The notes beneath the pieces were generated by a model that ran no database searches, had not been told where the DNA came from, and worked only from the letters and a program-made list of their open reading frames with translations. DNA of 64,000 nt from Sipunculus nudus (taxonomy: Eukaryota; Annelida; Sipuncula; Golfingiida; Sipunculidae). The stretch lies in assembly GCA_026874595.1 (NCBI GenBank), contig CM049313.1, positions 37,204,159 to 37,268,158 of the forward strand. The letters are read 5' to 3'. Both the position numbers and the translations under genes were made by a program. This document shows positions 2,491 to 44,829 of this stretch, piece by piece. Each line of letters begins with the position of its first letter. Position 1 is the first letter of the stretch.

Positions 2491-2496
2491 TCCTCC
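2491..2496. repeat. 6-bp target-site duplication, left copy (TCCTCC)
   Basis: TCCTCC directly precedes the AGTAGTG terminus and is matched by TCCTCC at 36009-36014 directly after the right terminus. Six-base duplications are characteristic of Polinton/Maverick integration. Confidence 0.9.
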
Positions 2497-2587
2497 AGTA
2501 GTGTATAGACATTTAGTTGCCAAAATAATCCGGTTTATCTGCCACCCGTGACGTCACAGCACCCCAATCCGCCGTAACTGCCACTTT
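2497..2587 (+). repeat. Left terminal inverted repeat (91 bp perfect)
   Basis: It starts AGTAGTGTATAGAC and is exactly complementary to 35918-36008. It contains one copy of the AATCCGGTTTATCTGCCAC iteron and one variant copy, flanking a GTGACGTCAC palindrome (a CRE-like octamer, TGACGTCA). It probably serves as integrase recognition site and replication origin; that role is inferred from the family. Confidence 0.92.
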
Positions 2588-6622: not shown

Positions 6623-6780
6623 CGACTTTTATGCTGTTCAAACCGGAAGCGCCGTACGCAAACCGAGTTCAGGTCTTGGAACCCGGCCAGATCCAAATCC
6701 CGTACCGGAAATAGTTGACAGATTCTCATTCTAGAATGGCTATTTATAGCAAGGTCCACGTGAATTATTTCATTCGCAAC
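6623..6780. promoter_or_regulatory. Divergent early promoter between the 517-aa gene and the DNA polymerase
   Basis: Minus orientation: the GTTTGCGTACGGCGCTTCCGGT core (6641-6662, complement) is followed by an ATAAAA box near 6626-6631, close to the 517-aa start. An 80-bp stretch (6641-6720) recurs nearly unchanged at 29016-29095. Toward the polymerase, CTATTTATAGC at about 6739-6749 is a TATA candidate some 35 bp before the ATG. Confidence 0.75.
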
Positions 6781-6781
6781 T

Positions 6782-9700
6782 ATGAAGCCTTATACGGTTA
6801 AAGAAAAAGCCCGTTCTTATTTTAGGAAATTCAAGAAGAAGGGTGTGGTGTTACAAGTGCAGCCGGACTTGAAGACATTAAAAAACGAGAAACCTTATGA
6901 TGCCATGTATGCTATTTTTGAACCGTTGTTAGAAGAATGGAAAAAAAGTCAAGAAGACAATTCATATTTACAAGTAAATATGACAACTGCAGAATTAAAC
7001 AACAAAGCCTTCAATACTAAATGGTTAAGAAATGAAGATATGACTTTGGAATATATCATGACACAAGTGGAAAAGACTTTAAACAGTAATGAAAATTTTC
7101 ATTTGACTGAAGATTTTGAAATGGAATTAAAATCCGTAGAAGTACCGGAATCGGTAGGAGGATCAGACAACGGCAATATTCAACAGCAGTGCCCCAGAAC
7201 GTATTTAGACCCGGCAGTTATTTCTTGGCATTTTAATCACGACGATTGTTTTATCGCCAGTTGTGTTTTAATGGATTGGGTAATAGATAAAAAATTACCC
7301 TTACGCTGGCGTAAACGTAAATTTACTAAAACAAAAATAGATGATTTGAAAAAAGAAATCCGCCGTATAAAAAAAGAAACAGAAGTTTATACCGGGCGTA
7401 TTACAATTAAACACATGTTTGAAATCGCGAAAGCTTTTCCGGAACGTAATTTATTAGTATTTCATGGTCATGAAAAAGATGTTATGTTTCGTTCTAAAAA
7501 TTGGGATTCAAAAAAACCTACTATATTTATTATGGTGCGGGGATCACACGCGTGGGGGATTTTAAAAATTAAATCGCATTTAAATATCCGCAATAATTTT
7601 TGTTTTATGTGTTTTAAAACATATAAAAACTTACACATATGTATTGATACTTGTAAAATGTGCGGGTTTAGCCCACCTTGTAATTATACAAAAGAAAATA
7701 CGATACTGGGATGTGACGAATGTAATTGGTACGGGTTTTTTAATGAACAGTGTTTTCAAAATCATAAAATGGTTACTCCTAAAGGAGCCCCCATGTGTGA
7801 AAAAAGGCGCGTGTGTGTGAAATGTAACACAGTATCATGCACTACACGCCACGTGTGTGGGGAATACACGTGTAAAATATGTTACGGGAAAGCACATGCG
7901 GGGGGGTTTCATTCGTGCTATATGCAACCGCTAAAAGAAAAAGCCGTCAGTAAAAAACCACACCCTTTTATTTTTTGGGACACAGAATGTACACAATCAG
8001 AAAAAGACGGAAACGGGTTAAGTATACATACAGTAAATGCCGTAGTGGCACATTACGTGTGTGAAAATTGTTTGGGGTATAGCGAAGCTGCACATGTATT
8101 AAAAAGAAAATGGCAGGACTGTAAATGTTCACGGCATCAATTTGAAACGCATACCCTTTTTTTCGATTGGTTATTCGGTACAGTAATAACACGATCAAAG
8201 AAAAAACCTATATGTTTCGCTCATAATTTCGGAGGATACGACGGGGGTTTTTTACAACAATATTTAATTTCTAAAGGCTGGTATGCTTCTTCTATAATAA
8301 CACGGGGATTAAGAATTATTTCTTTAACTGTACGAGATATACTATTTAAAGACAGTTTAAATTTAATACCAATCGGATTAGCACGGTTTCCCAAAGCTTT
8401 TGGAATCGAGGAATTAAAAAAAGGATTTTTTCCTTATGTTTTTAACACCAAAGAAAATAAAAACTATTTCGGTTTCATGCCACCGAAAGATTCGTTTAAA
8501 CAAGTCGGTAATGCAGATTTCGAATATTGGTACGAACAGAAAATAAAAGAGGGGTACATGTGGGACCACCGCCAAGAATTATTCGAATATTGTAACAGTG
8601 ATGTAGAATTATTAAAACAGGGGTGTTTAAAATTCCGGGAAATGTACATGAAAAAAGCTAATTTTGATTTATTTCAATATAACATGACATTAGCTTCTGC
8701 ATGTATGATGGATTTCAGATTAAATTATTTACAGGAAAATCAAATCGCCATGATTCCCCCACAAATTTCACGCGTCCATTTATCACAAATGGCAGAATAT
8801 TGGTTAGCAGATATGCAGAAAGATTCATTGTTTTACATACACCGGGGTAACGATAACTGGAACGGAAAAGAATGCCAAATTCAATTAATTAACGGGAAAT
8901 ACGTTTCTGTGGACGGATACTGTCCTGAAACTCATACCGTGTATGAATTCAACGGGTGTGTGTGGCACGGGTGCCCGCTTTGTACTTCCCTGGAAGGTAA
9001 AGTCCCAAATTCAGATATACCTAATTTTGTGGCTTTTATAAAACAAAAAAATAAAGAAAAAGAATTGAGAAATTCGGGGTATAACGTAATAAGTATCTGG
9101 GAACATGAATACGAATGTTCAAAAACGGACATTTCACTGACACCGAGACTCCAACCCCGTGAAGCATTTTTTGGAGGAAGGACAAATGCCGTGACCTTGT
9201 ACAAATCTATTCAACCAGGAGAACGTATTGATTACTATGACGTGACGTCCTTGTACCCGTTTGTACAAAAAACAAACAAGTACCCCGTAGGTGAACCGGA
9301 AGTTATCATGCGCCCAGAGGAAAAAGATGTAAAAAACTCACCTGGAGGAATCGTGTGCGGGAAATTCTTACCACCCCGTCACTTGTTTCATCCCGTATTA
9401 CCGTACAGAGCTTGCGGAAAACTCATGTTCCCTTTATGCCGGACTTGTGCCGAAACATTGAACCAAAGAGAGAAATGTACACACAACGAAAACGAACGGT
9501 CTTTGGTGGGCTCTTGGTGTTTGCCTGAAGTCCTGAAAGCTTTAGAAAAAGGGTACACGCTGATAGAAGGATACGAAATGTGGAGTTGGGCAGAATGGGA
9601 AAATATATTCGAGCCCTATATCAATAAATGGTACCAAGAAAAAACCCAAGCGTCCGGTTGGCCTAGCGATCATCAAGAAGAACGGCGAGAATATATCAAA

Positions 9701-10501
9701 GAACTAGAAAAACAAAACATACCAGTGGATCCAGATAAAATCGCTCATAACCCGGCATTACGGTTCGTAGCGAAACAAGCTTTGAATACTCTATGGGGAA
9801 AATTCGGCCAAAGAGATGGGATGGCTCAGAAAATACAAGTCAATAATTACGACGATTTAATACAAGTTTTAGAAGACCCCATCAACGAAGTGTGTGAAAT
9901 TATTAATTTAGGAGAACAGATCTTACAAGTCGAATACAAACGAAAAGAAGAAGATTACGGCCTGGGTAAAACGAATAACGCGGCAGTGGCCGCTTTTACT
10001 ACTTGTTACGGTCGAATGGTATTGTATGATATTTTAGACGAGTTAAAAGAACGCGCATTATATTTTGATACGGACTCTGTGATTTTTATTACACGCCCTA
10101 ATGACGCACCCTTGAAAAAAGGTTCTTTATTAGGTGACTTAACAGATGAATTAAACGGGGGATATATTACAGATTTTATTAGCGGGGGGCCTAAAAATTA
10201 CGGGTACCTGGGCTACGACGGGAAAGGAAATCCTATGAAATGTCAAAAAGCTCGGGGGTTTCAAATTCATAATAGAATTGATTTTCACGATTTGAAAAAA
10301 ATGGTCGATGCTTTAATCGGGCAAAAAGAACAAGAACCTATTAATGTCCCTATAGAGTTTCATGTAGTCAGGGATAAACAAGGGTACGTCAAATCTAAGA
10401 AATTAGATAAAATGTATGTGGCCGTATACGAAAAACGCCGCTTTTGGCAAGAAGGTGATGTGGGAGATAAGTATACGACATTTCCATATGGTTACCAATA
10501 A
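6782..10501 (+). CDS. polB: Family B DNA polymerase (protein-primed type), Polinton/adintovirus
   Basis: This 1,239-aa replicative polymerase has an N-terminal extension and 3'-5' exonuclease and polymerase domains. Exo I is FWDTECTQ (D400, E402), Exo II is HNFGGYDGG (D487) and Exo III is YCNSDVELL. Polymerase motif A is YYDVTSLYPF (D820), motif B KQALNTLWGKFG (K998), and motif C YFDTDS (D1096, D1098). All catalytic acidic residues are present. The gap between exonuclease and motif A is long enough for TPR-type insertions, as in protein-primed enzymes. The N-terminal 380 residues hold a DDCFIASC...GSHAWG segment that vaguely recalls an OTU-like cysteine-protease fold, then a dense Cys/His zinc-binding region (about 275-375). 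It should copy the linear genome from the terminal repeats. The stop overlaps a CAATAAAA polyadenylation signal. Confidence 0.96.
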   Translation: MKPYTVKEKARSYFRKFKKKGVVLQVQPDLKTLKNEKPYDAMYAIFEPLLEEWKKSQEDNSYLQVNMTTAELNNKAFNTKWLRNEDMTLEYIMTQVEKTLNSNENFHLTEDFEMELKSVEVPESVGGSDNGNIQQQCPRTYLDPAVISWHFNHDDCFIASCVLMDWVIDKKLPLRWRKRKFTKTKIDDLKKEIRRIKKETEVYTGRITIKHMFEIAKAFPERNLLVFHGHEKDVMFRSKNWDSKKPTIFIMVRGSHAWGILKIKSHLNIRNNFCFMCFKTYKNLHICIDTCKMCGFSPPCNYTKENTILGCDECNWYGFFNEQCFQNHKMVTPKGAPMCEKRRVCVKCNTVSCTTRHVCGEYTCKICYGKAHAGGFHSCYMQPLKEKAVSKKPHPFIFWDTECTQSEKDGNGLSIHTVNAVVAHYVCENCLGYSEAAHVLKRKWQDCKCSRHQFETHTLFFDWLFGTVITRSKKKPICFAHNFGGYDGGFLQQYLISKGWYASSIITRGLRIISLTVRDILFKDSLNLIPIGLARFPKAFGIEELKKGFFPYVFNTKENKNYFGFMPPKDSFKQVGNADFEYWYEQKIKEGYMWDHRQELFEYCNSDVELLKQGCLKFREMYMKKANFDLFQYNMTLASACMMDFRLNYLQENQIAMIPPQISRVHLSQMAEYWLADMQKDSLFYIHRGNDNWNGKECQIQLINGKYVSVDGYCPETHTVYEFNGCVWHGCPLCTSLEGKVPNSDIPNFVAFIKQKNKEKELRNSGYNVISIWEHEYECSKTDISLTPRLQPREAFFGGRTNAVTLYKSIQPGERIDYYDVTSLYPFVQKTNKYPVGEPEVIMRPEEKDVKNSPGGIVCGKFLPPRHLFHPVLPYRACGKLMFPLCRTCAETLNQREKCTHNENERSLVGSWCLPEVLKALEKGYTLIEGYEMWSWAEWENIFEPYINKWYQEKTQASGWPSDHQEERREYIKELEKQNIPVDPDKIAHNPALRFVAKQALNTLWGKFGQRDGMAQKIQVNNYDDLIQVLEDPINEVCEIINLGEQILQVEYKRKEEDYGLGKTNNAAVAAFTTCYGRMVLYDILDELKERALYFDTDSVIFITRPNDAPLKKGSLLGDLTDELNGGYITDFISGGPKNYGYLGYDGKGNPMKCQKARGFQIHNRIDFHDLKKMVDALIGQKEQEPINVPIEFHVVRDKQGYVKSKKLDKMYVAVYEKRRFWQEGDVGDKYTTFPYGYQ

Positions 10502-10517: not shown

Positions 10518-10546
10518 TCAATGTGTTTATGTGTTTCTATTTAATT

Positions 10547-11176
10547 ATGGGTGATATACCGTGGTATAAATTTAAACATCCTTTTACTATGTTAGTAGCG
10601 GGGCCTACTTCTTCCGGGAAAACCGTTTGGGTCACGAAATTATTATATAATATGAATAAAATGATATCTCCACCCCCTGAACGTATCCTTTGGTGTTATG
10701 CCGAAAAACAACCCATTTATTCTCAATTAAAAGAAACGTTTGGTGATAAAATTTTTTTCGAAGAAGGGTTACCGGCACGTAATATAAAAGCCGACACGTT
10801 ATTGATAATCGATGATTTGATGCGTGAGAGCGGACCCGAAACTGCAAAAATATTCGAAAAAGGAAGTCACCACCGAAACATTTCTATTATCTTTATCGTA
10901 CAAAATTTATTCCACGAAAAAAAAGAACAACGGAACATATCTTTAAATTCTCATTATATCGTATTATTAAAAAATCCCAGAGACCGGTTACAATTCGAAG
11001 TTTTAGCCCGGCAAATGTTCCCGACAAAAGCTAAAGAATTACGAGACGTGTACGACGACGCCACAAAAGAACCGCACGGTTATTTGTTATTGGATTTTAC
11101 ACAAAAGTGCCCAGACGAATACAGGCTCAGAACTTTAATTTTTCCAGGGGAAGAACACGTATACTATAACCTTTAA
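10547..11176 (+). CDS. Genome-packaging ATPase (FtsK/HerA, A32-like)
   Basis: A 209-aa P-loop ATPase. Walker A is GPTSSGKT (residues 19-26) and Walker B is TLLIIDD (DD at 89-90), with the compact length typical of Polinton, adintovirus and NCLDV A32-type packaging ATPases that pump genomic DNA into capsids. The ORF could begin 8 codons earlier at 10523, but a TATA box at 10510-10517 makes the later ATG (MGDIPWYKF) likelier. It follows the polymerase and is 3 bp from the next gene, a compact viral arrangement. Confidence 0.92.
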   Translation: MGDIPWYKFKHPFTMLVAGPTSSGKTVWVTKLLYNMNKMISPPPERILWCYAEKQPIYSQLKETFGDKIFFEEGLPARNIKADTLLIIDDLMRESGPETAKIFEKGSHHRNISIIFIVQNLFHEKKEQRNISLNSHYIVLLKNPRDRLQFEVLARQMFPTKAKELRDVYDDATKEPHGYLLLDFTQKCPDEYRLRTLIFPGEEHVYYNL

Positions 11177-18822: not shown

Positions 18823-19923
18823 ATGGAAAAAGTATTTCGTAAAGGACCCTACGCATACACGGGAGACGCACGGAAATTAGCTAAACAAGCCGGAGTCAGT
18901 AAAGAAGAAGCCGAAGATTATTTAGGAAAACAAAATGCTTATACTTTATTCAAACCTGTGCGTCGGAAATATAAACGCAGTAAAACATTGGTGGGAGGAA
19001 TAGACGAACAATGGCAAGCCGATTTAGCCGATATGCAAACTTTAGCCCGGGATAATAAAAATTACCGATATATTTTAACAGTCATTGATATTTTAAGCCG
19101 GTACGCTTGGGCCGTACCCGTAAAAGATAAAACGGGTCCTCATGTGAAAGAAGCTCTGGAAAGTATTTTTAACGAATCGGGACGGGTGCCTGAAAAATTA
19201 CAAACGGATGAAGGGACGGAATTCAGAAATAAACACGTTAAAGATTTATTGGATAAAAACGAAATCATATGGTTCGCTACCGGGAACCGGGATGTGAAAG
19301 CTAGTTTAGTAGAAAGGTTTAACCGCACTTTAAAACGGCGGTTGTTTGCCGCGATGAACGCGGAAAACCGTCGGCAATGGTACAAGGATTTACCCGTGGC
19401 CGTAGAAGAATATAATGCGAGACCTCATACTTCACACGGCGTACCGCCTAATTCCGTGACGTCACAAAACCAATCGAAAATATGGCGGAAATTATACGGG
19501 CACCCGAAAGATTTACACGAATCGGCGTCCGGCAGTAAAACCCGGCACCGGCCTCCATTACCCGTCGGGACATCGGTGGTATTGAGCAGTTTGAAAAAGA
19601 ATACTTTCGCCGAAAAAGGATACGTGCCACGTTGGACAGAAGAAACATTCATCGTGAAACGCGTGTACAGGGAAGTGGGTGGCGCAGACGTGTATAAATT
19701 AGAAGACGAGACCGGTGAACCTATAAAAGGCAGGTTTTACAGAGAAGAATTACAACGGGTTAGTACACCTCGCCCTGATAAAGTCGAAGAACGTATCGTG
19801 AAACGTCACAAAGGGTGGAAATTAGTAAAATGGCGGGGATATCCGGAAAAATACAACACATGGGTTCCGATAAAAAGGAAATCGAGACGGCGGAGACGTC
19901 GTCGTGGTGCACAAAGAGTATAA
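18823..19923 (+). CDS. RVE (retroviral-type DDE) integrase with C-terminal chromodomain
   Basis: A 366-aa integrase. The catalytic triad is D67 (WQADLADM), D129 (LQTDEGTEF) and E164 (ASLVERFNRTLK), with exact D-35-E spacing, so it appears catalytically complete. The C-terminus (about 322-353) reads ERIVKRHKGWKLVKWRGYPEKY..TWVP, the chromodomain signature with its aromatic residues, followed by an Arg-rich tail. It should cut the AG...CT termini and make the 6-bp target duplication. A chromodomain in some integrases steers insertion to marked chromatin. Note that this element sits in a gene for a chromatin reader. The start lies 5 bp after the preceding Arg-rich ORF. Confidence 0.95.
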   Translation: MEKVFRKGPYAYTGDARKLAKQAGVSKEEAEDYLGKQNAYTLFKPVRRKYKRSKTLVGGIDEQWQADLADMQTLARDNKNYRYILTVIDILSRYAWAVPVKDKTGPHVKEALESIFNESGRVPEKLQTDEGTEFRNKHVKDLLDKNEIIWFATGNRDVKASLVERFNRTLKRRLFAAMNAENRRQWYKDLPVAVEEYNARPHTSHGVPPNSVTSQNQSKIWRKLYGHPKDLHESASGSKTRHRPPLPVGTSVVLSSLKKNTFAEKGYVPRWTEETFIVKRVYREVGGADVYKLEDETGEPIKGRFYREELQRVSTPRPDKVEERIVKRHKGWKLVKWRGYPEKYNTWVPIKRKSRRRRRRRGAQRV

Positions 19924-23299: not shown

Positions 23300-24925
23300 A
23301 TGGTAGACGCCTCGACAGATATCGTCCAGCAAACAGCTCTGTTTGCTGGCGGTATGAAACAAGATTCTATCAGTCAAGGACGATGGGTGAAAACCGATCC
23401 TTTGACTCCTTCATACAAAACGGGAGGACCGGTTAATTTTTTTATCAGCGGGAACAGTCACGAATATATCGATTTAACTAATACGATGATGGTAATTAAA
23501 ATGGGGATTTTTACCGCCGACGGTCACCCGTGTCAAAAAGTCACGGATGATTTTATTTCCCCAATTAATAATATCATACACAGTATATGGCGGCAAATTA
23601 ATATTAAACTTAACGGGACGGAATTGAATACGCAAGATAACATGTACCCGTACCGGGCTTATTTAGATAATTTATTAGGGTACAGTCAAGAATACAAAGA
23701 AACGTGTTTATCAGCTATGACAGGGTGGTATAAGGATACGGCCGGTAAATTTAATGAATTGCCCGCCGCCATGGACGGAGGCAGCAGCGGCAACGGCAAC
23801 ATAGAATACACGATCAGCGAGGCCGAGACCAGCGGCGGCCACAAATGGGGCGCAGAAGACGGGGGAACCACAGGCAGCACCAGACCGTACGCCATGTACA
23901 CATTCAACAAGGACACGGCCGGCACCACGCAGGCCGGGGCAGAAATCCATCGAACTTATTTGATCCCGACCGCTAATGGCATGATCGGTTTAACGGGAAA
24001 AGATAAAATAAAAGAATCAATTATAACAGCCTGTTTGAATAAGAATTATGGAATGATGAATAGATTTTTACAATTTTTCCCGAATAACGCATTACCTACC
24101 AAGGATGCCGGAACGAACATTGAAACATCAAAATACATTACGTTTAAAGCCCCTATTCATTGCGATTTCACGGGTCAAAATAAACTGATAGTTAATGGTA
24201 TTGATGTCGGGATCGAATTCGATTTCACAGGTTCATCGGAATTTCCTATTATGCAATTTGCCGGGAAAAATAACCAATTGAAAGTTATGAGTATGTATTT
24301 AGAAGTAAGAAAAGTTACACCGTCAAAACGATTTGCCGATGCGGTGAATCAAAATCTCGCTAGAAATATGCCTATCCGTTGGCCGTTAAAACATTCGTTT
24401 TTGCGCACGTACGATCTACCTGTGAACGGAACACAAGCATCTTTACCCAATATGTTACAAGGACAAATGCCAAGAAGAATGGTCTTTGGATTTGTAGAAA
24501 GTAGAGCCTTTGCCGGTGACGAAACGAAAAACCCGTTTGAATTAAAAAATCTAAACGTTAATAAACTCCAAGTCCATATGAACGGGCATCCCGTCCCCAC
24601 GTACCCTTACGAACCGAAATGGGATAAAGACTGGAAACGGGAATACATTGATTTCCTGAACGGAGTCGGAGTCGTGAGAGGCGGTCTAGGTGTAGATATC
24701 ACGTACCAAGAATTTAAAAAAGGATACACGCTGTTCGCTACAGATTTCTCCCCTACATTAACTTCCGATGAAAAATACGTGCAGGATCCGACAGTGGGTG
24801 TCTTGAGGATGGATTTAGGATTCGATAAGGTCATCTCTACACAACATATAGTTATAGTATATTATGAAATGGACGGGGAAGTGACCATGGGTAATTCACG
24901 CGAAGTTTTGAAATCATACACTTAG
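23300..24925 (+). CDS. Major capsid protein 1 (double jelly-roll), with switchable insert
   Basis: A 541-aa hexon-like protein. It aligns along its length with the second capsid protein, from MVDASTDIVQQTALFAGG to the shared C-terminal DEKYVQDPTVGVLRM...YYEMDGE block, which matches Polinton MCPs as I recall them. The start at 23300 is chosen because it matches the start of the paralogue and the TATA spacing; the ORF is open from 23243. Residues 158-213 (23771-23938) are a Gly/Ser/Thr-rich insert with GC-rich codons unlike the rest of the gene. Near-identical silent copies of this insert lie at 35180-35735. The position, just after GWYKDTAGKFNELP, corresponds to the variable insert of the second capsid protein and is probably a surface loop. 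Confidence 0.95.
   Translation: MVDASTDIVQQTALFAGGMKQDSISQGRWVKTDPLTPSYKTGGPVNFFISGNSHEYIDLTNTMMVIKMGIFTADGHPCQKVTDDFISPINNIIHSIWRQINIKLNGTELNTQDNMYPYRAYLDNLLGYSQEYKETCLSAMTGWYKDTAGKFNELPAAMDGGSSGNGNIEYTISEAETSGGHKWGAEDGGTTGSTRPYAMYTFNKDTAGTTQAGAEIHRTYLIPTANGMIGLTGKDKIKESIITACLNKNYGMMNRFLQFFPNNALPTKDAGTNIETSKYITFKAPIHCDFTGQNKLIVNGIDVGIEFDFTGSSEFPIMQFAGKNNQLKVMSMYLEVRKVTPSKRFADAVNQNLARNMPIRWPLKHSFLRTYDLPVNGTQASLPNMLQGQMPRRMVFGFVESRAFAGDETKNPFELKNLNVNKLQVHMNGHPVPTYPYEPKWDKDWKREYIDFLNGVGVVRGGLGVDITYQEFKKGYTLFATDFSPTLTSDEKYVQDPTVGVLRMDLGFDKVISTQHIVIVYYEMDGEVTMGNSREVLKSYT
23771..23938 (+). other. Expressed variable cassette inside capsid gene 1
   Basis: A 168-bp in-frame segment from ATGGACGGAGGC to CAGGCCGGG. 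The GC content is clearly higher than in adjoining coding sequence. The last 94 bp of homology (from TGGGGCGCAGAAGACGG, running 1 bp past the cassette end) are identical to silent cassette A. The first 24 bp also match A. The middle (ATAGAATACACG; GCCGAGACCAGCGGCGGCC) matches silent cassette C instead. It therefore looks like a recombinant patchwork. Confidence 0.88.
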
Positions 24926-24972: not shown

Positions 24973-26679
24973 ATGGTGGACGCGGCGGGGGACATAGTCC
25001 AGAACACGGCTTTTTTTGCCGGGGGTACAAAACAAGATTCGATTTCTAAAGGGAGATGGGTAAAAAAGAAACCCGTTACAGCTTCGTATAAAACGGGTGG
25101 TCCGGTAGAATTTGTAATTGAAGGTAACGACACGGAATATATCGATTTGGGCAATACGACCTTAGTTTTAAAATTAGGTATATTTACTCCTGCCGGCCAC
25201 CCGTGTCAAAAATGGCTCAAAGATTATGTTTCTCCCGTTAATAATATAGCACACAGTTTATGGAAACAAGTCCGTTTAGAAATAAACGGGGTAGAAGTCA
25301 ATACGTTGGATAATATGTACGCGTATCGGGCCTATATGGAAAATTTATTTTCGTACAATGCGGAATTTAAACGTAGTATCTTATCTGGAATGACAGGTTG
25401 GTATAACGATACCCCGGAGAAATTTAATGCTATGCCAGATGAAACGAATTTTAAAACTAAAAATAATCATTGGGAAGAAACCATAAAAGGTGAAAAAAAT
25501 AATGATACAAACAGTAGTCATAAAGATTTATACGCATGGTCTCGAACCGCGTCTGACAAAAAAAAAGAATGTAAAACAAGCAATAACAAGAAAAACAACA
25601 ACAAAATAGATTGTAGTGACTGGCGACCTTATGTAAAAGTTTTCTTTAGTAAAGAGTCTGATAACACAAAAGTATACATAATTCCCACAGATCAAGGAAA
25701 AATAGGGTTAGGAAAAAAAGATGATAAAGCCAAATATTCTATTTTAACTGCTTCCTTGGATAAAAATTACGGGATGTTGAATAGATTTTTACAATTTTTT
25801 CCCGAAAATGACCCGTTCTGTGAAAATACAGAAATCTCACAAGAAATCACATTCAAAACCCCTTTGCATACAGATATCACACGACAAAATAAATTCATAC
25901 CAAATAATGTAGACATAAAATTTATTTTCGATATGAATCACAATCATGAATTTTATGTTATGCAAGATAGCCAAACTAGTACAACTACTATTAAACAAAC
26001 AGGAGTATTAAAAATAACTGATATGTATATGGAAGTAAGACGAGTTACTCCCACAGAAGGATTTAAAAATGCAGTCGAACAAAATTTAAGTCAAGGCTTA
26101 CCTGTACGTTATCCTGTAAAACATGCATTTTTAAGAACATATGATATACCCACACAAGCAAAAGAAGCCAACATGATGAATTTATTAAACGGGCAAATGC
26201 CACGAAGAATGATCTTTTGTTTTGTAAAAAGTTCGGCTTTTAAAGGAAAAGAAAAAGAAAACCCTTTTGAATTTCTTAATTTAAATACCAATAAAGTCCA
26301 AGTATACATGAACAATTACCCCGTTCCTGCTTATCCTTTTGAACCCGATTGGAATTCAAATTGGAAAAACATATTCATAGATTCATTAAACACATTAGGC
26401 ATCGTCAGAGGTTCATTAGGTATAAATGTTGATTATCAAGCATACAGAAAAGGCTATACATTTTACACCGCGGATTTTTCACCCTTGCTAGCTTCAGATG
26501 AAAAATACGTCCAAGACCCTACAGTCGGTGTTATCCGTATGGAATTAGGTTTTAAAGAAACATTAGACGACAAGCAAAAAATGATGCTAGCTTATTATGA
26601 AATGGACGGTGAAATCACCATAAACGTTGACCCTAACGATGAAAATAAAAAACGTCAAATCCTGAAAACTTTTGTATAA
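24973..26679 (+). CDS. Major capsid protein 2 (paralogue of capsid protein 1)
   Basis: A 568-aa double-jelly-roll protein, colinear with capsid protein 1 (SISKGRWVKKKP, NGQMPRRM, SDEKYVQDPTVGV). The region matching the cassette site of protein 1 (about residues 155-240; 25436-25690) is longer and quite different: Lys/Asn/Ser-rich, strongly AT-rich, with runs such as NNKKNNNK. No silent copies of this insert are seen in the element. Two capsid genes could make mixed capsomers, or be alternative shells. It has its own TATA box. Confidence 0.93.
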   Translation: MVDAAGDIVQNTAFFAGGTKQDSISKGRWVKKKPVTASYKTGGPVEFVIEGNDTEYIDLGNTTLVLKLGIFTPAGHPCQKWLKDYVSPVNNIAHSLWKQVRLEINGVEVNTLDNMYAYRAYMENLFSYNAEFKRSILSGMTGWYNDTPEKFNAMPDETNFKTKNNHWEETIKGEKNNDTNSSHKDLYAWSRTASDKKKECKTSNNKKNNNKIDCSDWRPYVKVFFSKESDNTKVYIIPTDQGKIGLGKKDDKAKYSILTASLDKNYGMLNRFLQFFPENDPFCENTEISQEITFKTPLHTDITRQNKFIPNNVDIKFIFDMNHNHEFYVMQDSQTSTTTIKQTGVLKITDMYMEVRRVTPTEGFKNAVEQNLSQGLPVRYPVKHAFLRTYDIPTQAKEANMMNLLNGQMPRRMIFCFVKSSAFKGKEKENPFEFLNLNTNKVQVYMNNYPVPAYPFEPDWNSNWKNIFIDSLNTLGIVRGSLGINVDYQAYRKGYTFYTADFSPLLASDEKYVQDPTVGVIRMELGFKETLDDKQKMMLAYYEMDGEITINVDPNDENKKRQILKTFV

Positions 26680-28949: not shown

Positions 28950-29146
28950 GGATTTTTAATTTTCCTATATTAAAACTCGCATTTATAAAGCCCTAGACGA
29001 GTCCATTATTAAAATCTGTCAACTATTTCCGGTACGGGACTTGGATCTGGCCGGGTTCCAAGACCTGAACTCGGTTTGCGTACGGCACTTCCGGTCCGCC
29101 CCCTATATTAGAATGAGCCCGTCCTAAATCGGTACCAGTCGTCACC
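28950..29146. promoter_or_regulatory. Divergent early promoter (RING-like and PC4-like genes)
   Basis: The 80-bp early motif (29016-29095) has its GTTTGCGTACGGCACTTCCGGT core at 29074-29095 facing the PC4-like gene, with CCTATATTAG just after it as TATA candidate. It is nearly identical to the complement of 6641-6720. Toward the RING-like gene, TTTATAAATGC on the minus strand near 28981-28990 is a second TATA box. Confidence 0.75.
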
Positions 29147-29819: not shown

Positions 29820-31121
29820 ATGCACACAGTTATGATGGAAACCATATCGGATAGTACATTAATCCAAACCCGGCCGTTTTATTTAAATTTAAAAGCCCCG
29901 CCCACCACCGTTGATGGTGATAAAGAACTTAAAATTAAACTCGACCCGACCCTTTACTTAGACCCCAAAGTCGGGGCTTGGGAAGTAGCTTTAACCCGAT
30001 TAAGTTTCCCGAGTGCTTGGTACAATATCCACGAAAAAGAATGCTGGGTCCGATTAACCCATTATGATATAGAAAAAGATAAAACCTATAATACATCCTA
30101 TAGTATTGAAAGCTATATACCGGCCGGTTACTACCCCCGCATCTTCATGTATGCCGACACGAATTCCAAAACCCAAAAATTTAATATAGCTTCTCAATTT
30201 GGCTTATGGAAAGCATTAAATAGATGTTTTATAAATTTAAATGCTCAATATAAAACTTTACATTTAGAAGGTTCAGAACAAGAGCAATCACCCACCGCAA
30301 GTGGTACTGGTGGTAAATTAATCAACCCGGAACTCGTCCGGCTCGCCCCTAAATCCTACAAAGGCACCACCGGTACAACAAGTATTGATAAAAAACAAAA
30401 TATGGTCATGGGAATTCAAATCCCTAGAGATGAAGAAAACAAACATGAATACGTGTTAGAAATGCATCCTAAATTACAGTTCATGATCGGCTTCACCCGC
30501 CCCCGTTTAAGAAAACGAAGCAACAATAAATGCAAAGAATTAAAATTTGTGATGTCCAATACGGGTACCGCAGCGAAACCCATAAACACAATGATTATAC
30601 CTTCCAATACTGCTCAAACAGAATGGGAAGAATCAGAAGCGACTTTCAATATGTCAGCAAGAAGCAGCAATTACAAATACAAGTATCAAACCTTTTACCC
30701 TTGTGTAAATCAAACAGATTTACGCCCGAACGAAATGGAAACCATTATGGAAATTCATACGAATTTTACCGCCGCCGATACGTTCCACACGGGCACAGAG
30801 CACGAAGGTCCTGCCCGGGTCTTAGCCACGTTCCATGCCCGTGCCGAAGCCAATGCCAACCGTCCTGAAGACCAAAGTTTTACCAAAAGTGTATATGAAT
30901 ACCCCGTTGTAGGTTTCAATGCCCCGTACAGTTCAGTCCGGCAACACATATCCGGTTCGGCCCATTATAGTTCGAGTTTTCACCAGTACCATCCCTGCCT
31001 TACAGGCTGGTATTCCGAAATGAAATTTCAATTCAAACACCCTACCGGGTATAAAACGTATTTCATTCCAGGCGGAGATTTATTCATGCAATTATATTTC
31101 AAACCGTGCCGTAGACGGTAA
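29820..31121 (+). CDS. Penton/minor-capsid-like structural protein 1
   Basis: A 433-aa protein with the signature LYLDPKVGAWEVALTRL followed by FPSAWYNIHEKEC near the N-terminus. I recall this pattern from Polinton and adintovirus structural proteins (penton or minor capsid). Other shared blocks with its neighbour are IESYIPAGYYPR, LEMHPKLQ, NANRPEDQSF and the C-terminal GWYSEMKFQFKHPTGY...PGGDLFMQL. The translation start may be 29832 or 29835, given the TATA box at 29794. A less conserved AT-rich stretch lies at about 30170-30290. It is probably a virion vertex or spike-base component. Confidence 0.82.
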   Translation: MHTVMMETISDSTLIQTRPFYLNLKAPPTTVDGDKELKIKLDPTLYLDPKVGAWEVALTRLSFPSAWYNIHEKECWVRLTHYDIEKDKTYNTSYSIESYIPAGYYPRIFMYADTNSKTQKFNIASQFGLWKALNRCFINLNAQYKTLHLEGSEQEQSPTASGTGGKLINPELVRLAPKSYKGTTGTTSIDKKQNMVMGIQIPRDEENKHEYVLEMHPKLQFMIGFTRPRLRKRSNNKCKELKFVMSNTGTAAKPINTMIIPSNTAQTEWEESEATFNMSARSSNYKYKYQTFYPCVNQTDLRPNEMETIMEIHTNFTAADTFHTGTEHEGPARVLATFHARAEANANRPEDQSFTKSVYEYPVVGFNAPYSSVRQHISGSAHYSSSFHQYHPCLTGWYSEMKFQFKHPTGYKTYFIPGGDLFMQLYFKPCRRR

Positions 31122-31160: not shown

Positions 31161-32423
31161 ATGGCCACACCAACGGACCCGACGGCACACCGTAGCACGG
31201 AATTTTTCGTGGCGGTAGACGAATTTATCGACCGAATCCGACCTGCCACATTCAATGTAGCTTTAACCCCTCCTTTGTATTTAGACCCCCGCGCCGGTCG
31301 ATGGGAAGTGAGTTTAACCAAATTAGCCTACCCCTCATCCTGGTACACAGTCCATGAAAAGGAATGTTACATGCGTTTAATCCATAAACAAACCCATGAA
31401 GGTCAAACCAAAACCCAAAGCATAGAATCCTATTTCCCTGCCGGCTACTACCCCAGACATTACATGTTTCGCAAATACAAAAACAAGAAACAGGAAATAG
31501 ATCGCAACATTAATACCAATTCATTTGCTGCCCTGAAAAAAACCCTCAAAGATATAAATGCTAAAAAACGCGAATTGGATTTAACCAATACAACATTAAA
31601 AGACATACAAGACAATTTCGACCTCGTAATATTAAATAATTGGTCTATGTCAGGTACTGATGATAATAACGACAAAATATATATGAATGTATACATGGGC
31701 CTAAGCTTGCCTGGTACAGAATGCCATTCCTCCAGGGACAAAAATGTCGTAACAGCAATCCCCGGTTATACCAATGAATACAGATTAGAACTACACCCCA
31801 AACTACGTCAAATATTAGGTTGTACTGATGATTTGTACGAATACGATAAAAAAACTGCTCCCAATATAGACATGATGTATGTCATCGCCAAAAATGAAGA
31901 ATGGGTAGCTAAATATTTAAATTTACCCGCATACTTTCACACTCATTTTCCAATTACCAAAAGTACAGCAGGCACTGGAAAATCCAATGCAAAAAAAGCA
32001 TGTTTCCAAATGCATTACCAGTACCTGAATTTCAGCCAATTAAAAATCAACGATATTGAAAATATATTAGAAATCCATACAGATTTTACCCGACCGGATA
32101 CGTTTTCTCACAATCAAGGCCCGCAACGAATTTTAGCCACAATCCACACCAATCCCGAAGTCAATGCCAATCGGCCAGAAGACGAATATTTCGGAAAAAG
32201 TATAGTAGAAAACCCTAGTTTAGCTTTTAATAAACCGTATAGTCAAATCCGAGAATTTATTTCATCCACACACCACCATAAACTAACCAATACGAATTAC
32301 CACCCATGTAAATCTGGCTGGTATTCCAAATTAAAATTTCAATTCAAACACCCTTCCGGGCATAATACGACCTTCGTTCCCGGTGGAAAAGTATTCATGC
32401 AATTACATTTCAGACCCTATTAA
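31161..32423 (+). CDS. Penton/minor-capsid-like structural protein 2 (paralogue)
   Basis: A 420-aa tandem paralogue of the upstream gene. It shares YLDPRAGRWEVSLTKLAYP, HEKECYMRL, ESYFPAGYYPR, LELHPKLRQ, NANRPEDEYF and the C-terminal GWYSKLKFQFKHPSG block. The middle (about residues 105-290) has diverged strongly and is richer in Asn, Asp and Lys. As with the two capsid genes, the conserved frame and divergent middle suggest selection on exposed parts. Its own TATA box lies 29 bp upstream. Confidence 0.82.
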   Translation: MATPTDPTAHRSTEFFVAVDEFIDRIRPATFNVALTPPLYLDPRAGRWEVSLTKLAYPSSWYTVHEKECYMRLIHKQTHEGQTKTQSIESYFPAGYYPRHYMFRKYKNKKQEIDRNINTNSFAALKKTLKDINAKKRELDLTNTTLKDIQDNFDLVILNNWSMSGTDDNNDKIYMNVYMGLSLPGTECHSSRDKNVVTAIPGYTNEYRLELHPKLRQILGCTDDLYEYDKKTAPNIDMMYVIAKNEEWVAKYLNLPAYFHTHFPITKSTAGTGKSNAKKACFQMHYQYLNFSQLKINDIENILEIHTDFTRPDTFSHNQGPQRILATIHTNPEVNANRPEDEYFGKSIVENPSLAFNKPYSQIREFISSTHHHKLTNTNYHPCKSGWYSKLKFQFKHPSGHNTTFVPGGKVFMQLHFRPY

Positions 32424-32440
32424 CTGGCAACGAGCCAATT

Positions 32441-32505
32441 GGCCGGGTTCCAAGAGCTGAACTCGGTTTGCGTACGGCGCTTCCGGTTTAGAAGGCATAA
32501 AAACC
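32441..32505 (+). promoter_or_regulatory. Early promoter motif, copy 4
   Basis: GGCCGGGTTCCAAGAGCTGA and the core GTTTGCGTACGGCGCTTCCGGT (32466-32487) are followed by CATAAAAAC at 32495-32503, 27 bp before the next ATG. Confidence 0.75.
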
Positions 32506-35179: not shown

Positions 35180-35341
35180 CCCGGCCTGCGTGGTGCCGGC
35201 CGTGTCCTTGTTGAATGTGTACATGGCGTACGGTCTGGTGCTGCCTGTGGTTCCCCCGTCTTCTGCGCCCCAGGTGTGGCTGCCGCTGGTGGCCTCGCTG
35301 ATCGAGTATTCTTTGTCGTTGCCGCTGCTGCCTCCGTCCAT
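35180..35341 (-). other. Silent capsid cassette A (162 bp)
   Basis: A reverse-oriented homologue of the 23771-23938 segment of capsid gene 1. In that frame it has no stop (54 codons). From TGGGGCGCAGAAGACGG onward, the last 94 bp of homology are identical to the expressed copy. The first 24 bp also match, while the stretch between differs and is shorter by two codons. It is followed by GGAGTAAAGAAAAACAG, not by capsid sequence, so it is promoterless and cannot make capsid protein in place. Confidence 0.88.
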
Positions 35342-35374
35342 GGCGTCGGTCCAGCACACGGTGCGCTTTTCTCT
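35342..35374 (-). repeat. Spacer repeat of the cassette array
   Basis: The minus strand reads AGAGAAAAGCGCACCGTGTG then CTGGACCGACGCC. The same sequence plus one base separates B and C (35534-35567), and a diverged copy precedes C (35736-35755, TGTGCTGGACCGACGCC). The regular unit suggests the array grew by tandem duplication of cassette plus spacer. Confidence 0.82.
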
Positions 35375-35533
35375 CCCGGCCTGCGTGCCGCTGCCCGTGG
35401 CCTGGTCGAATGTGTACATGGCGTACGGTCTGGTGCTGTCTTTGGTTCCCCCGTCTGCTGTGCCCCATTTGTGGCTGCCGCCGCTTTCGGCCGTGGTGAC
35501 CGTGTATTCGTTGCCGCTGTCGCCTCCGTCCAT
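35375..35533 (-). other. Silent capsid cassette B (159 bp)
   Basis: The second silent copy, 53 codons without stop. It keeps ATGGACGGAGGC, AGCACCAGACCGTACGCCAT and ACGCAGGCCGGG but differs between them, encoding for example TFDQATGSGTQAG where the expressed copy has TFNKDTAGTTQAG. It is separated from A by a 33-bp spacer. Confidence 0.88.
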
Positions 35534-35567
35534 GGCGTCGGTCCAGCACACGGTGCGCTTTTCTCTC

Positions 35568-35735
35568 CCCGGCCTGCGTGCTGCTGGCCGCGTCCTTGTC
35601 GAATGTGTACATGGCGTACGGTCTGGTGCTGTCTTTGGTTCCCCCGTCTGCTGTGCCCCATTTGTGGCCGCCGCTGGTCTCGGCCTTGCTGGTCGTGTAT
35701 TCTATGTTGCCGTCGCTGCTTTCGCCTCCGGTCAT
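35568..35735 (-). other. Silent capsid cassette C (168 bp)
   Basis: The third silent copy, 56 codons without stop, the same length as the expressed copy. It shares ATAGAATACACG and GCCGAGACCAGCGGCGGCC with the expressed copy, where A and B differ. Its second half is of the B type (ACAGCAGACGGGGGAACCAAA). The 34-bp spacer between B and C is one base longer than the A/B spacer, so B and C are not in one frame. Confidence 0.88.
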
Positions 35736-35782
35736 GGCGTCGGTCCAGCACAGTGTGCACCCCCAAAAAATTGGCAGTGAAA

Positions 35783-35916
35783 GTGGCAGATAAACCGGAT
35801 TGAGAGTGAAAGTGGCAGATAAACCGGATTGAGAGTGAAAGTGGCAGATAAACCGGATTAATCAAAAAGTGGCAGATAAACCGGATTGGCAGTAAAAGTG
35901 GCAGATAAACCGGATT
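35783..35916 (+). repeat. Right subterminal iteron array
   Basis: Five perfect copies of the 19-mer GTGGCAGATAAACCGGATT start at 35783, 35812, 35841, 35869 and 35898, spaced 28-29 bp, with GAGAGTGAAA-type spacers. One more perfect copy (35960) and one variant (35921) are in the terminal repeat. They could be binding sites for integrase or a replication initiator. Confidence 0.85.
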
Positions 35917-35917
35917 G

Positions 35918-36008
35918 AAAGTGGCAGTTACGGCGGATTGGGGTGCTGTGACGTCACGGGTGGCAGATAAACCGGATTATTTTGGCAACTAAATGTCTAT
36001 ACACTACT
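35918..36008 (-). repeat. Right terminal inverted repeat (91 bp perfect)
   Basis: Exact complement of 2497-2587, ending GTCTATACACTACT. It includes the GTGACGTCAC palindrome near 35949-35958. Confidence 0.92.
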
Positions 36009-36014
36009 TCCTCC
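36009..36014. repeat. 6-bp target-site duplication, right copy (TCCTCC)
   Basis: It immediately follows the right terminus and is identical to 2491-2496. Confidence 0.9.
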
Positions 36015-40710: not shown

Positions 40711-43700
40711 AGGACCTTGCAGCACAAAAGAAATAGGGGCACCTAATGGGGAAATATTAAAATTATTAAATATTTAGCTTAATAGGACATAATCCCGCAA
40801 AGTAAAACAAACTTGTCCAAGGAGAGCGCACAACCGATACGTCTGCCGAATTTGGAGAGTCAAATCAGAACGAAAGCAGGTAAAACGTGGTCTAGAAAAA
40901 CCCAACTCCGTATTAATTATATGAAGCTAGGCTAAGAGCTTGGAACAGCCTGTCGTAATTTGTATTGGACAGTGGGTCTGTGAACCAATTCAGACCTATG
41001 CATCTTAATGCGAAACATCGTTTTAAAAATTATTGGTTCCCATAGAAGGATAAGCCGACTAATACACGACTAAGCAGGCATTTTATTGGGCTGGTAAGCC
41101 TATAAATTTCGCTGGCCGTGGACTCTCCAATGTCAGGGGACCGAAATGGCACTAATAGGCTAAAGGGTCTTCTGATACCCGTGACCACTTAATTGCCTCC
41201 CCCGGGAGTGTATGCTTACATTAAACAAACTTTCTCATTGCCATTCGTATGTGTGTTTGTGTGTTTGTACACAACATATATCACACGATAATGAACGGAA
41301 TCTCTTGAAATTTGAAATTTTTGGGCATATCGGGAATGGGCCACGGAAGGAGCGAATACATATTGGTTTGGATCCAGAACATGATCCGGAATCAGGAATG
41401 TCATCAAGGTATATTCACAAATGTAGTCACTTATGCACGAATGAACCTGACAATATTGGTCGAATAAGTGAATGCAAACACGGGTTTTGGAGCATCGCGG
41501 TTGTAAATTAAAAATATCGTGATTGCAGATAATGAATCACAGCCTCGCACCACATTATATCGCAACACACAATGCTTTTTTTTAAATATCGTAGCTATAC
41601 AGCTAAATTTAACGTGTAAGGCTATATCATAACAGTCACCGAGGAAGCCAAACAAAAACCAATTTAATCGCTCATACTGTGTAAAAGAGTTTTTAAAATT
41701 TTCCCATATAACCAGGAAAATTGCATGCATATTTTAAGACTAAGGCAATGCCTTAAGAATATAAAAATCAGATAAATTTAGGGGCTTTTGTGTCGCTTGA
41801 TTTTTGTGGATACAATATTATGAAACACCATAAGATACACTAAGAAGGAATTTTCTTCGATGACGTCACCGCCACGTCCGCTTTTGCGGCTTATTTGCCT
41901 TTCATGTTTGACAAGTCAGACTCGAAATAACAAAAAACTGCTTATATTTATTGATATAGGCGAAGATGATAGGAATAATTACATCACAATTCTACATATT
42001 ATATTACCTGGTTAAGATCAATATCAACAAAATCAATACTTTAAATAGGGAGCATTTTGCACTATCAATTGAGTTTACAGAGAATATTAGTTTTTTTATT
42101 TACATCACAACTAAATGTAAAAATTACGATCCGTTGGCCTCCATTGGTGTGGATTACCCATAACAAAACCATACAGCGTCCGAAAATAACTTGTTCTGCT
42201 GAATTACTGAAGGAAGATGCACCCATACGACTCTTAAATAATTTTAGTTTTTCCAAAAAGACATGCCCCTTAACAAACCACTATTAAAACCAGACATTTA
42301 GGTTTGTTTAAGCGATGTCAAGTGCCATAACTCTTACATTCATCACCATAATGATTATTCAATTTCCAAATGCTGTCATATGGCGGAAATAAAAGCTGTC
42401 TTAACTGTAAGCCTACCTTGTAATAGACAGAATCGGAAAAACCCCTTGTAATATCAATATCAACATCAGAGGAATTTTGTTGAGGTATTCGTGTGTTTCT
42501 ATGTGTCTCATTATATAAAAGTAATGATTTTGTTTCGATGTCATTAAGGATGAAAAAATATCTTGTACTTTTGTAATTTGTCTATTTTTATCATATTTAA
42601 TCACTCGCAGTTAAACGTGTTGTCAAGTATTTGTTGTGTACAATATCTAGAAATTAACCCTCAATTTTCATGAAAAATAAACAGAAAGATAAATTGTTTT
42701 CATCTCTTTCATTTAAGAAAAAAATGGACACTAAAAAAACTGAATCGCTAAGACATAGAGAACATTGGAGATGGGTGAGGTATACCCGTGGGTTTGTCCG
42801 AGCTTTCGGAAGAAACCCGCAGAGTTCAAGACCTTAATTAAACCATTCTGAGATGTCACACGCACTACGTTTTAATTTCCGGCACAGCTTGGAATTCCTC
42901 CAGCACATTTTGGTCATCATTCGGCGGTCTTAATCTCGTCACTCTGGTCAGAATGGGAATCAAAAGAGTACGGCTCTGCTGGCTTTGGTTTATAAGCGAT
43001 GAAATACACCGTGGCTTCTTCATAACTGCAAAGAAGAGGGCAATGAAAATAGTCCGTTCAAATATGTTGGTTTAGAAATGTTTCAAGGCAAATAACGTAA
43101 ACATGGGTGTTTTTGTTGGACTTCATGGTATACATAATATATTGTGAGCATACAAATTTGCAATATAAATAGGTGTTTCCTTTATATATAACAACTTTTG
43201 ATATTTAGGTTTGACAGTTGAGACAGTAGTCCCGGCCATCCCCACAATTCCAAACCGAAACCTCTGGCGCAAGGATGTAATCTTATGTGATTCAGCATAA
43301 CATGAATCGCCGTCGCGGAGTATGAACATTTTAAAAATTGAAAATATCCTTTTTTTATGTATTTACCATTCAATATACAGACATAATATCTGAAATGTTT
43401 AAAATAACACGCACTATATTGCTTGATTGATATTCCTTTTTTCCTCCAGAAACTGAAGATTACAGTCAGTATTTGTACAAAAGTATTATATGAATAAACA
43501 AAATACATGTACATGTAAACAGAAAAAATGGGATAAATATCCTGTAACAATATAAACAGAGTATACAGGTTCAATCAACAGCGATCATTATAGAAATTTG
43601 CACACTACACAGTATAAAGTGAGAGGGTAGGAGACAATACAGAACTATGGGTCTGAAAATTATACACAATGTTGTCTTAAATGGGACAGAGAACACCGCA

Positions 43701-44829
43701 AACGGGCATTATCCGCAGAGACCATATTTTGATAACGCTGTTCCGTGCTAAATGGGCTATTGATATGCAAGATATATTTATGATTATAATACAGAATCAA
43801 AGAAGAAACAAATCTAAACCGTTAATTATCAAACAGTGCAAAAATTAAAGACAGCGCAATTTACTTGAGGGATCGGTAGTCCAAAGGAAGCTCAAGTCCT
43901 TATAGGCCACAGATAAAAAATGCTCACAAAATGCTCATATAAATACTTCCGGTCTGTGCATCAGTTTTTTTTATTAACGGTGAAATCTGAAAAACTCTAT
44001 AGTTGGTAGGCATAACATTATATTAAACATCTGTTCTTCTTCTAGGCTAAAGAGAAAAAAACTATCCTATACAGGCAACATATCAGTAAAATTATCCCAC
44101 AAGTTATCTCTCTCTGGCTTTGTTACACAACACAGTAATGAGGCATGGAAAATTGGATTAGTGTACAAATGACCACACATATGACAAAGATAAGATGAAC
44201 AATAATCGTCAAACAAACCACAGTAGGCAAGTAATTTAATCAAGAACAAGAACAAGCCAAAAGTTCCTGGGATCTGTTCTGCATATTGCCATATAACAGT
44301 GATGGTGCGAAATAATCCTCTTTTACGATACAAAAGCGTTTACATACTGGAAAATCCATTAAACTGTTAAAGAACATGTTTTCTTCATTTAATACTACTT
44401 AACTTGTAACAAGTTCGTCCCATTGCCACTTAGAAGGAAAATGCCAGTACATGTACAAAGAAAACTTATTAAAGTGGAATCAAACCCATACTTAAAAATG
44501 AACGACACAAACTCAGCAACGCTATACCTAACGAGCACTTGCGCGATAGCGTATTGAATATGAATTCTGATTATAAGAATACAAAAAGGAACCATAGCTG
44601 TCGACTTCTGCACAACCGTCCGAAATAAAGTAGCTTCAATCTATCCAAAAAATACAGATAAGCGTGGTGCTGCTAAAAAACTTAAAGCTATGTTAGTGGG
44701 GGTTCTCTTATGAAGATCTTGCATTACTTTAAGGCAAAAGCGATGCATCCTCTCAAGCGAAATAATTTGATTGTGAACACCAAAGTTCACTTTCGTACAG
44801 GGCTCTAGGAAGCACAACCGTTTTATTTA
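40711..44829. other. Noncoding host sequence
   Basis: I see no convincing gene. Short ORFs here lack protein-like composition or splice-flanked continuity. The segment is AT-rich with no clear repeat structure that I can delimit. Confidence 0.45.

What the first reader, a model, noticed from the sequence alone, without database searches (positions are those of the whole stretch)
35180..35735. Array of silent capsid-loop cassettes next to the terminal repeat: candidate antigenic-variation system in a Polinton
Seen: three reverse-oriented copies (162, 159, 168 bp) of a segment that is in frame inside capsid gene 1 (23771-23938, 168 bp). All four lengths are multiples of three, none has a stop in the capsid frame, and all share exact anchors (GGAGGC at the start, AGCACCAGACCGTACGCCAT in the middle, ACGCAGGCCGGG at the end) with variation between. 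The copies lack a promoter and the rest of the capsid gene. Known parallels: silent archives with one expression site in Borrelia vls, Neisseria pilS/pilE and trypanosome VSG, often near chromosome ends. Inference: gene conversion from the array into capsid gene 1 changes an exposed loop. I know of no such system described for Polintons or adintoviruses.
Basis: partly seen in the sequence, partly recalled or inferred. Interest (0 to 1): 0.96.

Follow-up and report, generated by a model that had tools for sequence, protein, structure and literature searches.

The report
Capsid-loop archive in a Polinton
A virus-like transposon in a large eukaryotic genome carries, next to its end, spare silent versions of one loop of its shell protein, and comparing sister copies of the transposon indicates that these spares are copied into the working gene to change the virus's coat, as some bacteria and parasites do.

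Summary
In detail: three tandem, reverse-oriented, in-frame partial copies (168, 159, 162 bp) of a 168-bp piece of capsid gene 1 lie beside the right terminal repeat of a 33.5-kb Polinton/adintovirus-type element. All 10 right ends found for this family carry an array (23 cassettes). Nine capsid inserts were recovered; each is closest to its own element's array (two, a duplicated pair, tie with each other's), although capsid backbones follow another tree. Sisters E1 and E2 differ at 62 of 4448 positions outside the insert and 35 of 150 inside. E2's insert is a mosaic of its own three cassettes (1 mismatch; best single cassette 9). Mosaicism is significant in 3 of 6 elements tested. Inserts have few private states (4, against 112 in cassettes of the same four elements), suggesting array-to-gene transfer. 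No array was found for a related family whose loop is nearly constant. This is a silent-cassette gene-conversion system on a double-jelly-roll capsid loop. Surface exposure, an immune role and present activity are untested.

The parts
2491..2496 (.). target site duplication, left (TCCTCC)
   Evidence: read from the sequence printed; same 6 bp at 36009-36014
2497..2587 (+). left terminal inverted repeat (outer 91 bp)
   Evidence: 100% complementary to 35918-36008
6782..10501 (+). family B DNA polymerase
   Evidence: DNA_pol_B_2, E 2.6e-48
10523..11176 (+). A32-like ATPase
   Evidence: Pox_A32, E 3.4e-06
18823..19923 (+). rve integrase with chromodomain
   Evidence: rve E 7.2e-12, Chromo E 1.5e-05
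23303..24925 (+). capsid gene 1 (double jelly-roll capsid protein), the presumed expression site
23771..23938 (+). variable cassette inside capsid gene 1
   Evidence: hypervariable between sister elements
24973..26679 (+). capsid gene 2, paralogue; no copies of its loop found elsewhere in the window
35180..35341 (-). silent cassette C (E1_3), 162 bp
35342..35374 (-). spacer between cassettes B and C
35375..35533 (-). silent cassette B (E1_2), 159 bp
35534..35567 (-). spacer between cassettes A and B
35568..35735 (-). silent cassette A (E1_1), 168 bp
35776..35923 (.). 29-bp subterminal repeats
35918..36008 (-). right terminal inverted repeat (outer 91 bp)
36009..36014 (.). target site duplication, right (TCCTCC)
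   Evidence: read from the sequence printed

Best explanation
The element is a Polinton/adintovirus-type provirus with a silent-cassette archive. One complete capsid gene (capsid gene 1) is the expression site. A tandem array of one to three partial copies of one loop of that protein, head-to-head with the gene some 9-12 kb away beside the right terminal repeat, is the store. Segments of cassettes are copied by homologous recombination (gene conversion), guided by conserved anchors at the start, middle and end, into capsid gene 1. This makes mosaic loops on an otherwise conserved shell protein. Shown by comparison: family-wide architecture, loop hypervariability, own-array identity, mosaicism in some elements, and few private states in the gene. 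Inferred: transfer mainly from array to gene, recombination in the viral phase, surface exposure, and selection by host recognition (immune or receptor).
For: (1) Array at 10 of 10 family right ends found; 23 cassettes, 20 of 23 with length a multiple of three; flanks and spacers conserved. (2) Nearest cassette in the own array in 9 of 9 elements (E3 and E6, a duplicated pair, tie with each other's); with E6 dropped, the own assignment has the lowest summed distance of all 40320 permutations. (3) E1 and E2 are sisters by backbone (FastTree support 0.996), yet each insert groups with its own cassettes; 62/4448 differences outside the insert, 35/150 inside, Fisher P 9e-29. (4) Mosaics: E2 1 mismatch against 9/28/41 for single cassettes, order shuffle 0/5000; E4 3 against 11/37/22 (38/5000); E5 6 against 20/38/22 (31/5000). 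E3's insert equals its only cassette over 162 bp. (5) Private states: 4 in capsid inserts, 112 in the 12 cassettes of E1, E2, E4, E5 (binomial P 3e-10 against 1/4, sites treated as independent). (6) Within-array pN/pS 1.7-5.3 in the six arrays with at least two in-frame cassettes; capsid backbone after the insert 0.22. (7) Family F2: loop at 30 places, none within 20 kb of another by the listed coordinates; loop windows 4 and 6 variable columns per 100 in 15 aligned copies, other windows 0-6.
Against: Mosaicism is not significant in E1 (336/5000) and E9 (266/5000) and is absent in E7 (5000/5000; 10 mismatches remain). E8's capsid insert has a deletion and frameshift, its nearest own cassette leads only 78.2 to 75.3%, and E4's array explains slightly more of its variable columns (0.848) than its own (0.829). 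Over all pairs of 19 in-frame cassettes pN/pS is 1.02, and extreme third-position bias may deflate pS. Direction rests on an indirect count; E8, with 6 private states in the broken capsid copy and 18 in its cassettes, was left out of it. F2 copies are young, and a strongly diverged F2 array could have escaped a 166-bp DNA query. No expression, virion or switching event was seen; the loop is modelled at pLDDT below 50. Several capsid copies are broken (E4, E7, E8, E9). One assembly only.
Confidence: 0.86

Rival explanations
1. Host-mediated gene conversion after integration: the inverted pair of similar sequences in the provirus is homogenised by the host's own repair, with no role in the viral life cycle.
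For: Own-array similarity would also arise this way; E3 is fully homogenised.
Against: It does not explain why loop and cassettes are far more divergent than their flanks between E1 and E2, why 20 of 23 cassettes keep the frame, why pN/pS is above 1 within arrays, or why the capsid copy has few private states.
Confidence: 0.08
2. The array is a passive tandem duplicate of a capsid piece, kept by chance; the copies diverged without function.
For: Three of 23 cassettes are frameshifted; some capsid copies are broken.
Against: Present at 10 of 10 right ends found, with conserved spacers; own-array tracking and mosaics; 30 of 33 variable columns in the window at codon positions 1-2.
Confidence: 0.03
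3. The array is itself expressed, as a small repeat protein (decoy) or as antisense RNA against capsid gene 1.
For: Each cassette begins with an ATG in a context that I recall as favourable for initiation; cassettes B and C of the window are in frame with each other.
Against: Cassette A is out of frame with B in the window, and spacers vary from 33 to 35 nt between and within arrays, so no constant frame runs across cassettes. Antisense use is not tested.
Confidence: 0.03
4. A diversity-generating retroelement-like, adenine-targeted mutagenesis makes the variation.
For: 28 of 33 variable columns contain A.
Against: No reverse transcriptase domain in the 23 element ORFs scanned with Pfam; no single invariant template; among changes without T, A/C (9) and C/G (4) are not clearly different (counts).
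Confidence: 0.01

Closest known systems
Borrelia vls (vlsE and vlsS silent cassettes)
   Same: Contiguous partial cassettes in opposite orientation to one expressed gene, near a telomere, frames mostly kept, frameshifts between cassettes common in some strains, raised G+C, high dN/dS in variable regions, segmental transfer described as unidirectional (PMC11499132, passages seen). Ours.
   Different: Bacterial surface lipoprotein on a plasmid, 15 cassettes in strain B31; here a capsid protein of a eukaryotic element, 1-3 cassettes 9-12 kb away. vls has a strong GC skew; here G and C are about equal and T is depleted.
Neisseria pilS/pilE and trypanosome VSG archives (recalled, not tested)
   Same: Silent copies feed one expressed surface protein by gene conversion.
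   Different: Cellular organisms; no shared sequence or machinery was tested.
Adenovirus hexon variable loops
   Same: Double jelly-roll capsid; DE1 is described as externally exposed with epitopes of neutralising antibodies (PMC6642145, passage seen).
   Different: I recall hexon variation as mutation and recombination between viruses, with no silent cassettes.
Phage diversity-generating retroelements, tail-fibre inversion and shufflons (recalled)
   Same: Mobile elements that diversify a surface protein.
   Different: Those use a reverse transcriptase or a site-specific recombinase; neither domain was found in the ORFs scanned.

Membership tests
Silent-cassette gene-conversion system (vls/pilS type, by mechanism) | One complete gene plus partial silent copies in an array | tested here: met
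Silent-cassette gene-conversion system (vls/pilS type, by mechanism) | The complete copy tracks and recombines with its own archive | tested here: met
   9 of 9 nearest own, two of them tied; best of 40320 permutations; mosaics significant in 3 of 6
Silent-cassette gene-conversion system (vls/pilS type, by mechanism) | Transfer from archive to expression site, not the reverse | tested here: inconclusive
   private states 4 against 112 favour it; no direct observation
Silent-cassette gene-conversion system (vls/pilS type, by mechanism) | Silent copies lack a promoter and are not expressed | not testable with these tools
   no expression data
Silent-cassette gene-conversion system (vls/pilS type, by mechanism) | Variable part is on the surface | tested here: inconclusive
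   DE-loop position by strand order; residues 145-276 at pLDDT below 50
Silent-cassette gene-conversion system (vls/pilS type, by mechanism) | Switching observed during infection; immune escape | not testable with these tools
   none
Polinton/adintovirus | Family B polymerase, rve integrase with chromodomain, A32-type ATPase | tested here: met
   protein priming and the OTU-like domain of adintovirus polymerases were not tested
Polinton/adintovirus | Double jelly-roll major capsid protein | tested here: met
Polinton/adintovirus | Terminal inverted repeats and 6-bp target duplication | tested here: met
Polinton/adintovirus | Adenain-type protease | tested here: inconclusive
   no Pfam hit in the ORFs scanned
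Diversity-generating retroelement | Reverse transcriptase with one invariant template repeat | tested here: not met
   no such domain in the 23 element ORFs scanned; copies diverge from each other
Shufflon / invertible tail-fibre segment | Site-specific serine or tyrosine recombinase with fixed crossover sites | tested here: not met
   only an rve integrase found in the ORFs scanned; inferred joints lie at different positions in E1, E2, E4, E5

The most novel reading that the evidence does not exclude
A eukaryotic DNA virus/transposon lineage carries an on-board, programmed archive for switching its capsid surface by gene conversion during the viral life cycle, convergent in detail with Borrelia vls, and the archives themselves turn over between elements through recombination.
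Probability: 0.7. Interest if true: 0.97.

Novelty: new variant of a known kind. Interest (0 to 1): 0.93.

Why it matters
Archive-based surface switching is known from bacteria and protists. I recall none in a virus, and the listings of the paper searches (listings are capped: 3 of 4, 1 of 1, 20 of 85 and 10 of 162 papers) showed none by title or start of abstract. It would show that Polintons face selection on their shell, which bears on the open question whether they make infectious virions, and it offers a testable case of convergent design: opposite orientation, terminal position, raised G+C, frame kept inside but not between cassettes.

Tried and rejected
Chance: rejected by E-values. Adenine-targeted mutagenesis: considered because 28 of 33 variable columns contain A; not needed. 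Mosaicism from the window alone was not significant (permutation P 0.22 for cassette C, 0.05 for A); only the other elements settled it. GC-biased conversion as the cause of high GC3: in the insert third-position T is 0 of 56 codons while A stays at 0.18, so plain GC bias does not describe it; left open. Over the family T3 is low but not zero: 19 of 1031 in cassettes, 7 of 381 in inserts. Homology of the insert with the capsid 2 loop is weak (shuffle P 0.04-0.05). The match of capsid 1 to 43659-43742 in the flank (E 0.018) was taken as chance. The figures for the backbone before the insert are distorted by out-of-frame rows (E4, E9) and are not used; the nucleotide figures are.

No relatives outside the genome: six scans of viral contigs, one of genome contigs and a phage tblastn confirmed none; two protein searches gave five distant capsid proteins, and the four in the alignment lack the loop. 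PDB by sequence profile: none up to E 1. PHROGs: one weak hit for another protein. Rfam: none. Structure libraries gave double jelly-roll capsids at the top.

The F3 loop genome search did not complete; one F3 right-end piece gave one weak cassette hit (27% identity, E 0.003), one F2 right-end piece none up to E 1; whether these pieces hold the true element ends was not checked. E10's capsid was not found in the one 3.5-kb piece fetched.

Full report

THE ARRAY. Between the last gene and the right terminal repeat lie three minus-strand copies of a 168-bp piece of capsid gene 1, separated by 33-34 bp spacers. In the alignment of insert and copies 33 columns vary, 30 of them at codon positions 1 or 2 (P 0.0013). 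The insert has no state that is not in one of the copies. Third codon positions contain no T in any of the four sequences, against 0.30 T in the rest of capsid gene 1; third-position G+C of the insert is 0.82, while the highest of 6306 windows in 16 other ORFs was 0.66. Insert and array thus share a composition that the flanking codons of the same gene do not have.

THE FAMILY TEST. After several unanswered requests the window's genome became searchable. Ten right ends of this family were found by their conserved flank (a lower bound), and at all ten an array abuts the flank. From them 23 cassettes were read, 1-3 per element, 20 of 23 with a length that keeps the frame. Spacers are strongly conserved between elements while cassettes differ widely. 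Nine capsid inserts were recovered (end points corrected). E3 and E6, 337 kb apart on one contig, are a near-identical pair.

OWN-ARRAY TRACKING. For 9 of 9 inserts the closest cassette lies in the own array; E3 and E6 tie with each other's. By share of variable columns explained, the own array is best or tied in 8 of 9; in E8, whose insert has a deletion, E4's array is slightly better, 0.848 against 0.829. With E6 dropped, the own assignment has the lowest summed distance of all 40320 permutations. The capsid backbone tree pairs E1 with E2 (0.996), but their inserts join their own cassettes. E1 and E2 differ at 62 of 4448 positions around the insert but at 35 of 150 inside it; the 300 bp beyond their arrays agree at 98.3%, while the best pair of cassettes agrees at 81.0% and the inserts at 76.0%. 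Two sister elements thus carry different cassette sets and different loops in nearly the same capsid.

MOSAICS. The E2 insert is E2_1, then E2_2, then E2_3, then E2_1 again, with one mismatch; single cassettes give 9, 28 and 41. Shuffling the order of variable sites gave an equally cheap mosaic in 0 of 5000 trials for E2, 38 for E4, 31 for E5, 336 for E1, 266 for E9 and 5000 for E7. Three of the six tested are significant, two borderline, one shows nothing. E3's insert equals its single cassette over 162 bp; E6's differs from its own at one base. E8 was left out of the shuffle test because of its deletion.

DIRECTION AND SELECTION. In E1, E2, E4 and E5 the capsid copies have 4 private states and the 12 cassettes 112, which fits a recipient that samples the store; sites are not independent, so the P of 3e-10 is indicative. 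E8, left out of the sum, has 6 in its broken capsid copy and 18 in its cassettes. Within-array pN/pS is 5.25 (E1), 1.72 (E2), 2.66 (E4), 3.75 (E5), 3.92 (E8) and 1.77 (E9); over all 171 pairs of 19 in-frame cassettes it is 1.02, for capsid inserts 0.93, and in the capsid backbone after the insert 0.22. Silent DNA alone should give about 1, so values above 1 inside arrays suggest that cassettes have been selected through expression; codon bias may lower pS and weaken this.

CONTROL. In family F2 (capsid about 74% identical to capsid 1) the loop was found at 30 places, none within 20 kb of another by the coordinates listed, so no archive was found. In 15 aligned copies the loop windows hold 4 and 6 variable columns per 100, other windows 0-6. 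These copies are very similar throughout, so the control says little about variability, and a strongly diverged array could have been missed. F3 was not tested genome-wide.

WHERE THE LOOP LIES. By strand order the insert falls between strand 96-103 with its following helices and strand 278-284, the DE position of the first jelly roll (naming of strands is mine). In adenovirus hexon DE1 is described as externally exposed with epitopes of neutralising antibodies (PMC6642145, passage seen). The loop itself is not confidently modelled.

COMPARISON. The closest system by design is Borrelia vls: opposite orientation, no promoter on the array, frameshifts between cassettes common in some strains and rarer within them, raised G+C (49.1% against about 28.6% for chromosomes), high dN/dS in variable regions, unidirectional segmental transfer (PMC11499132, passages seen). 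Here insert and cassettes have 63-65% G+C against about 40% for the rest of capsid gene 1. It works like vls; common descent was not tested and is not claimed. Inverted orientation means that an accidental crossover would invert, rather than delete, the DNA between gene and array (inference).

VERDICT. 'Antigenic' remains a hypothesis; receptor choice is an equal candidate, since the host and its defences are unknown here.

Noticed in passing
6642-6729 / 29008-29095 and 6627-6689 / 32440-32502: Intergenic inverted repeats of 88 bp (95%) and 63 bp (92%), possibly shared control regions.
   Followed up: no
29820-31121 and 31161-32423: A second pair of related genes (repeat of 119 bp at 79%); possible duplicate minor capsid genes, not tested.
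   Followed up: no
3049-4320 and 3210-4313, minus strand: Two long overlapping ORFs in different frames in a G+C-rich stretch near the left end; no Pfam hit.
   Followed up: partly
23771-23938 and 35180-35735: No T at third codon positions in any of the four cassette sequences; no explanation found.
   Followed up: partly
G000: At least two further related Polinton families in the same genome, about 15 and about 11 capsid genes of near-equal length and identity, most of them without stops.
   Followed up: partly
13674-16550: 958-aa Lys/Ala/Pro-rich repeat protein with a 33-bp tandem repeat.
   Followed up: no
L042: Degraded single cassette followed by a capsid-like flank on contig C17, probably a decayed capsid copy.
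   Followed up: partly
Best match in the viral structure library is a bracovirus protein (R9XLG5), which may be a captured Polinton capsid gene.
   Followed up: no
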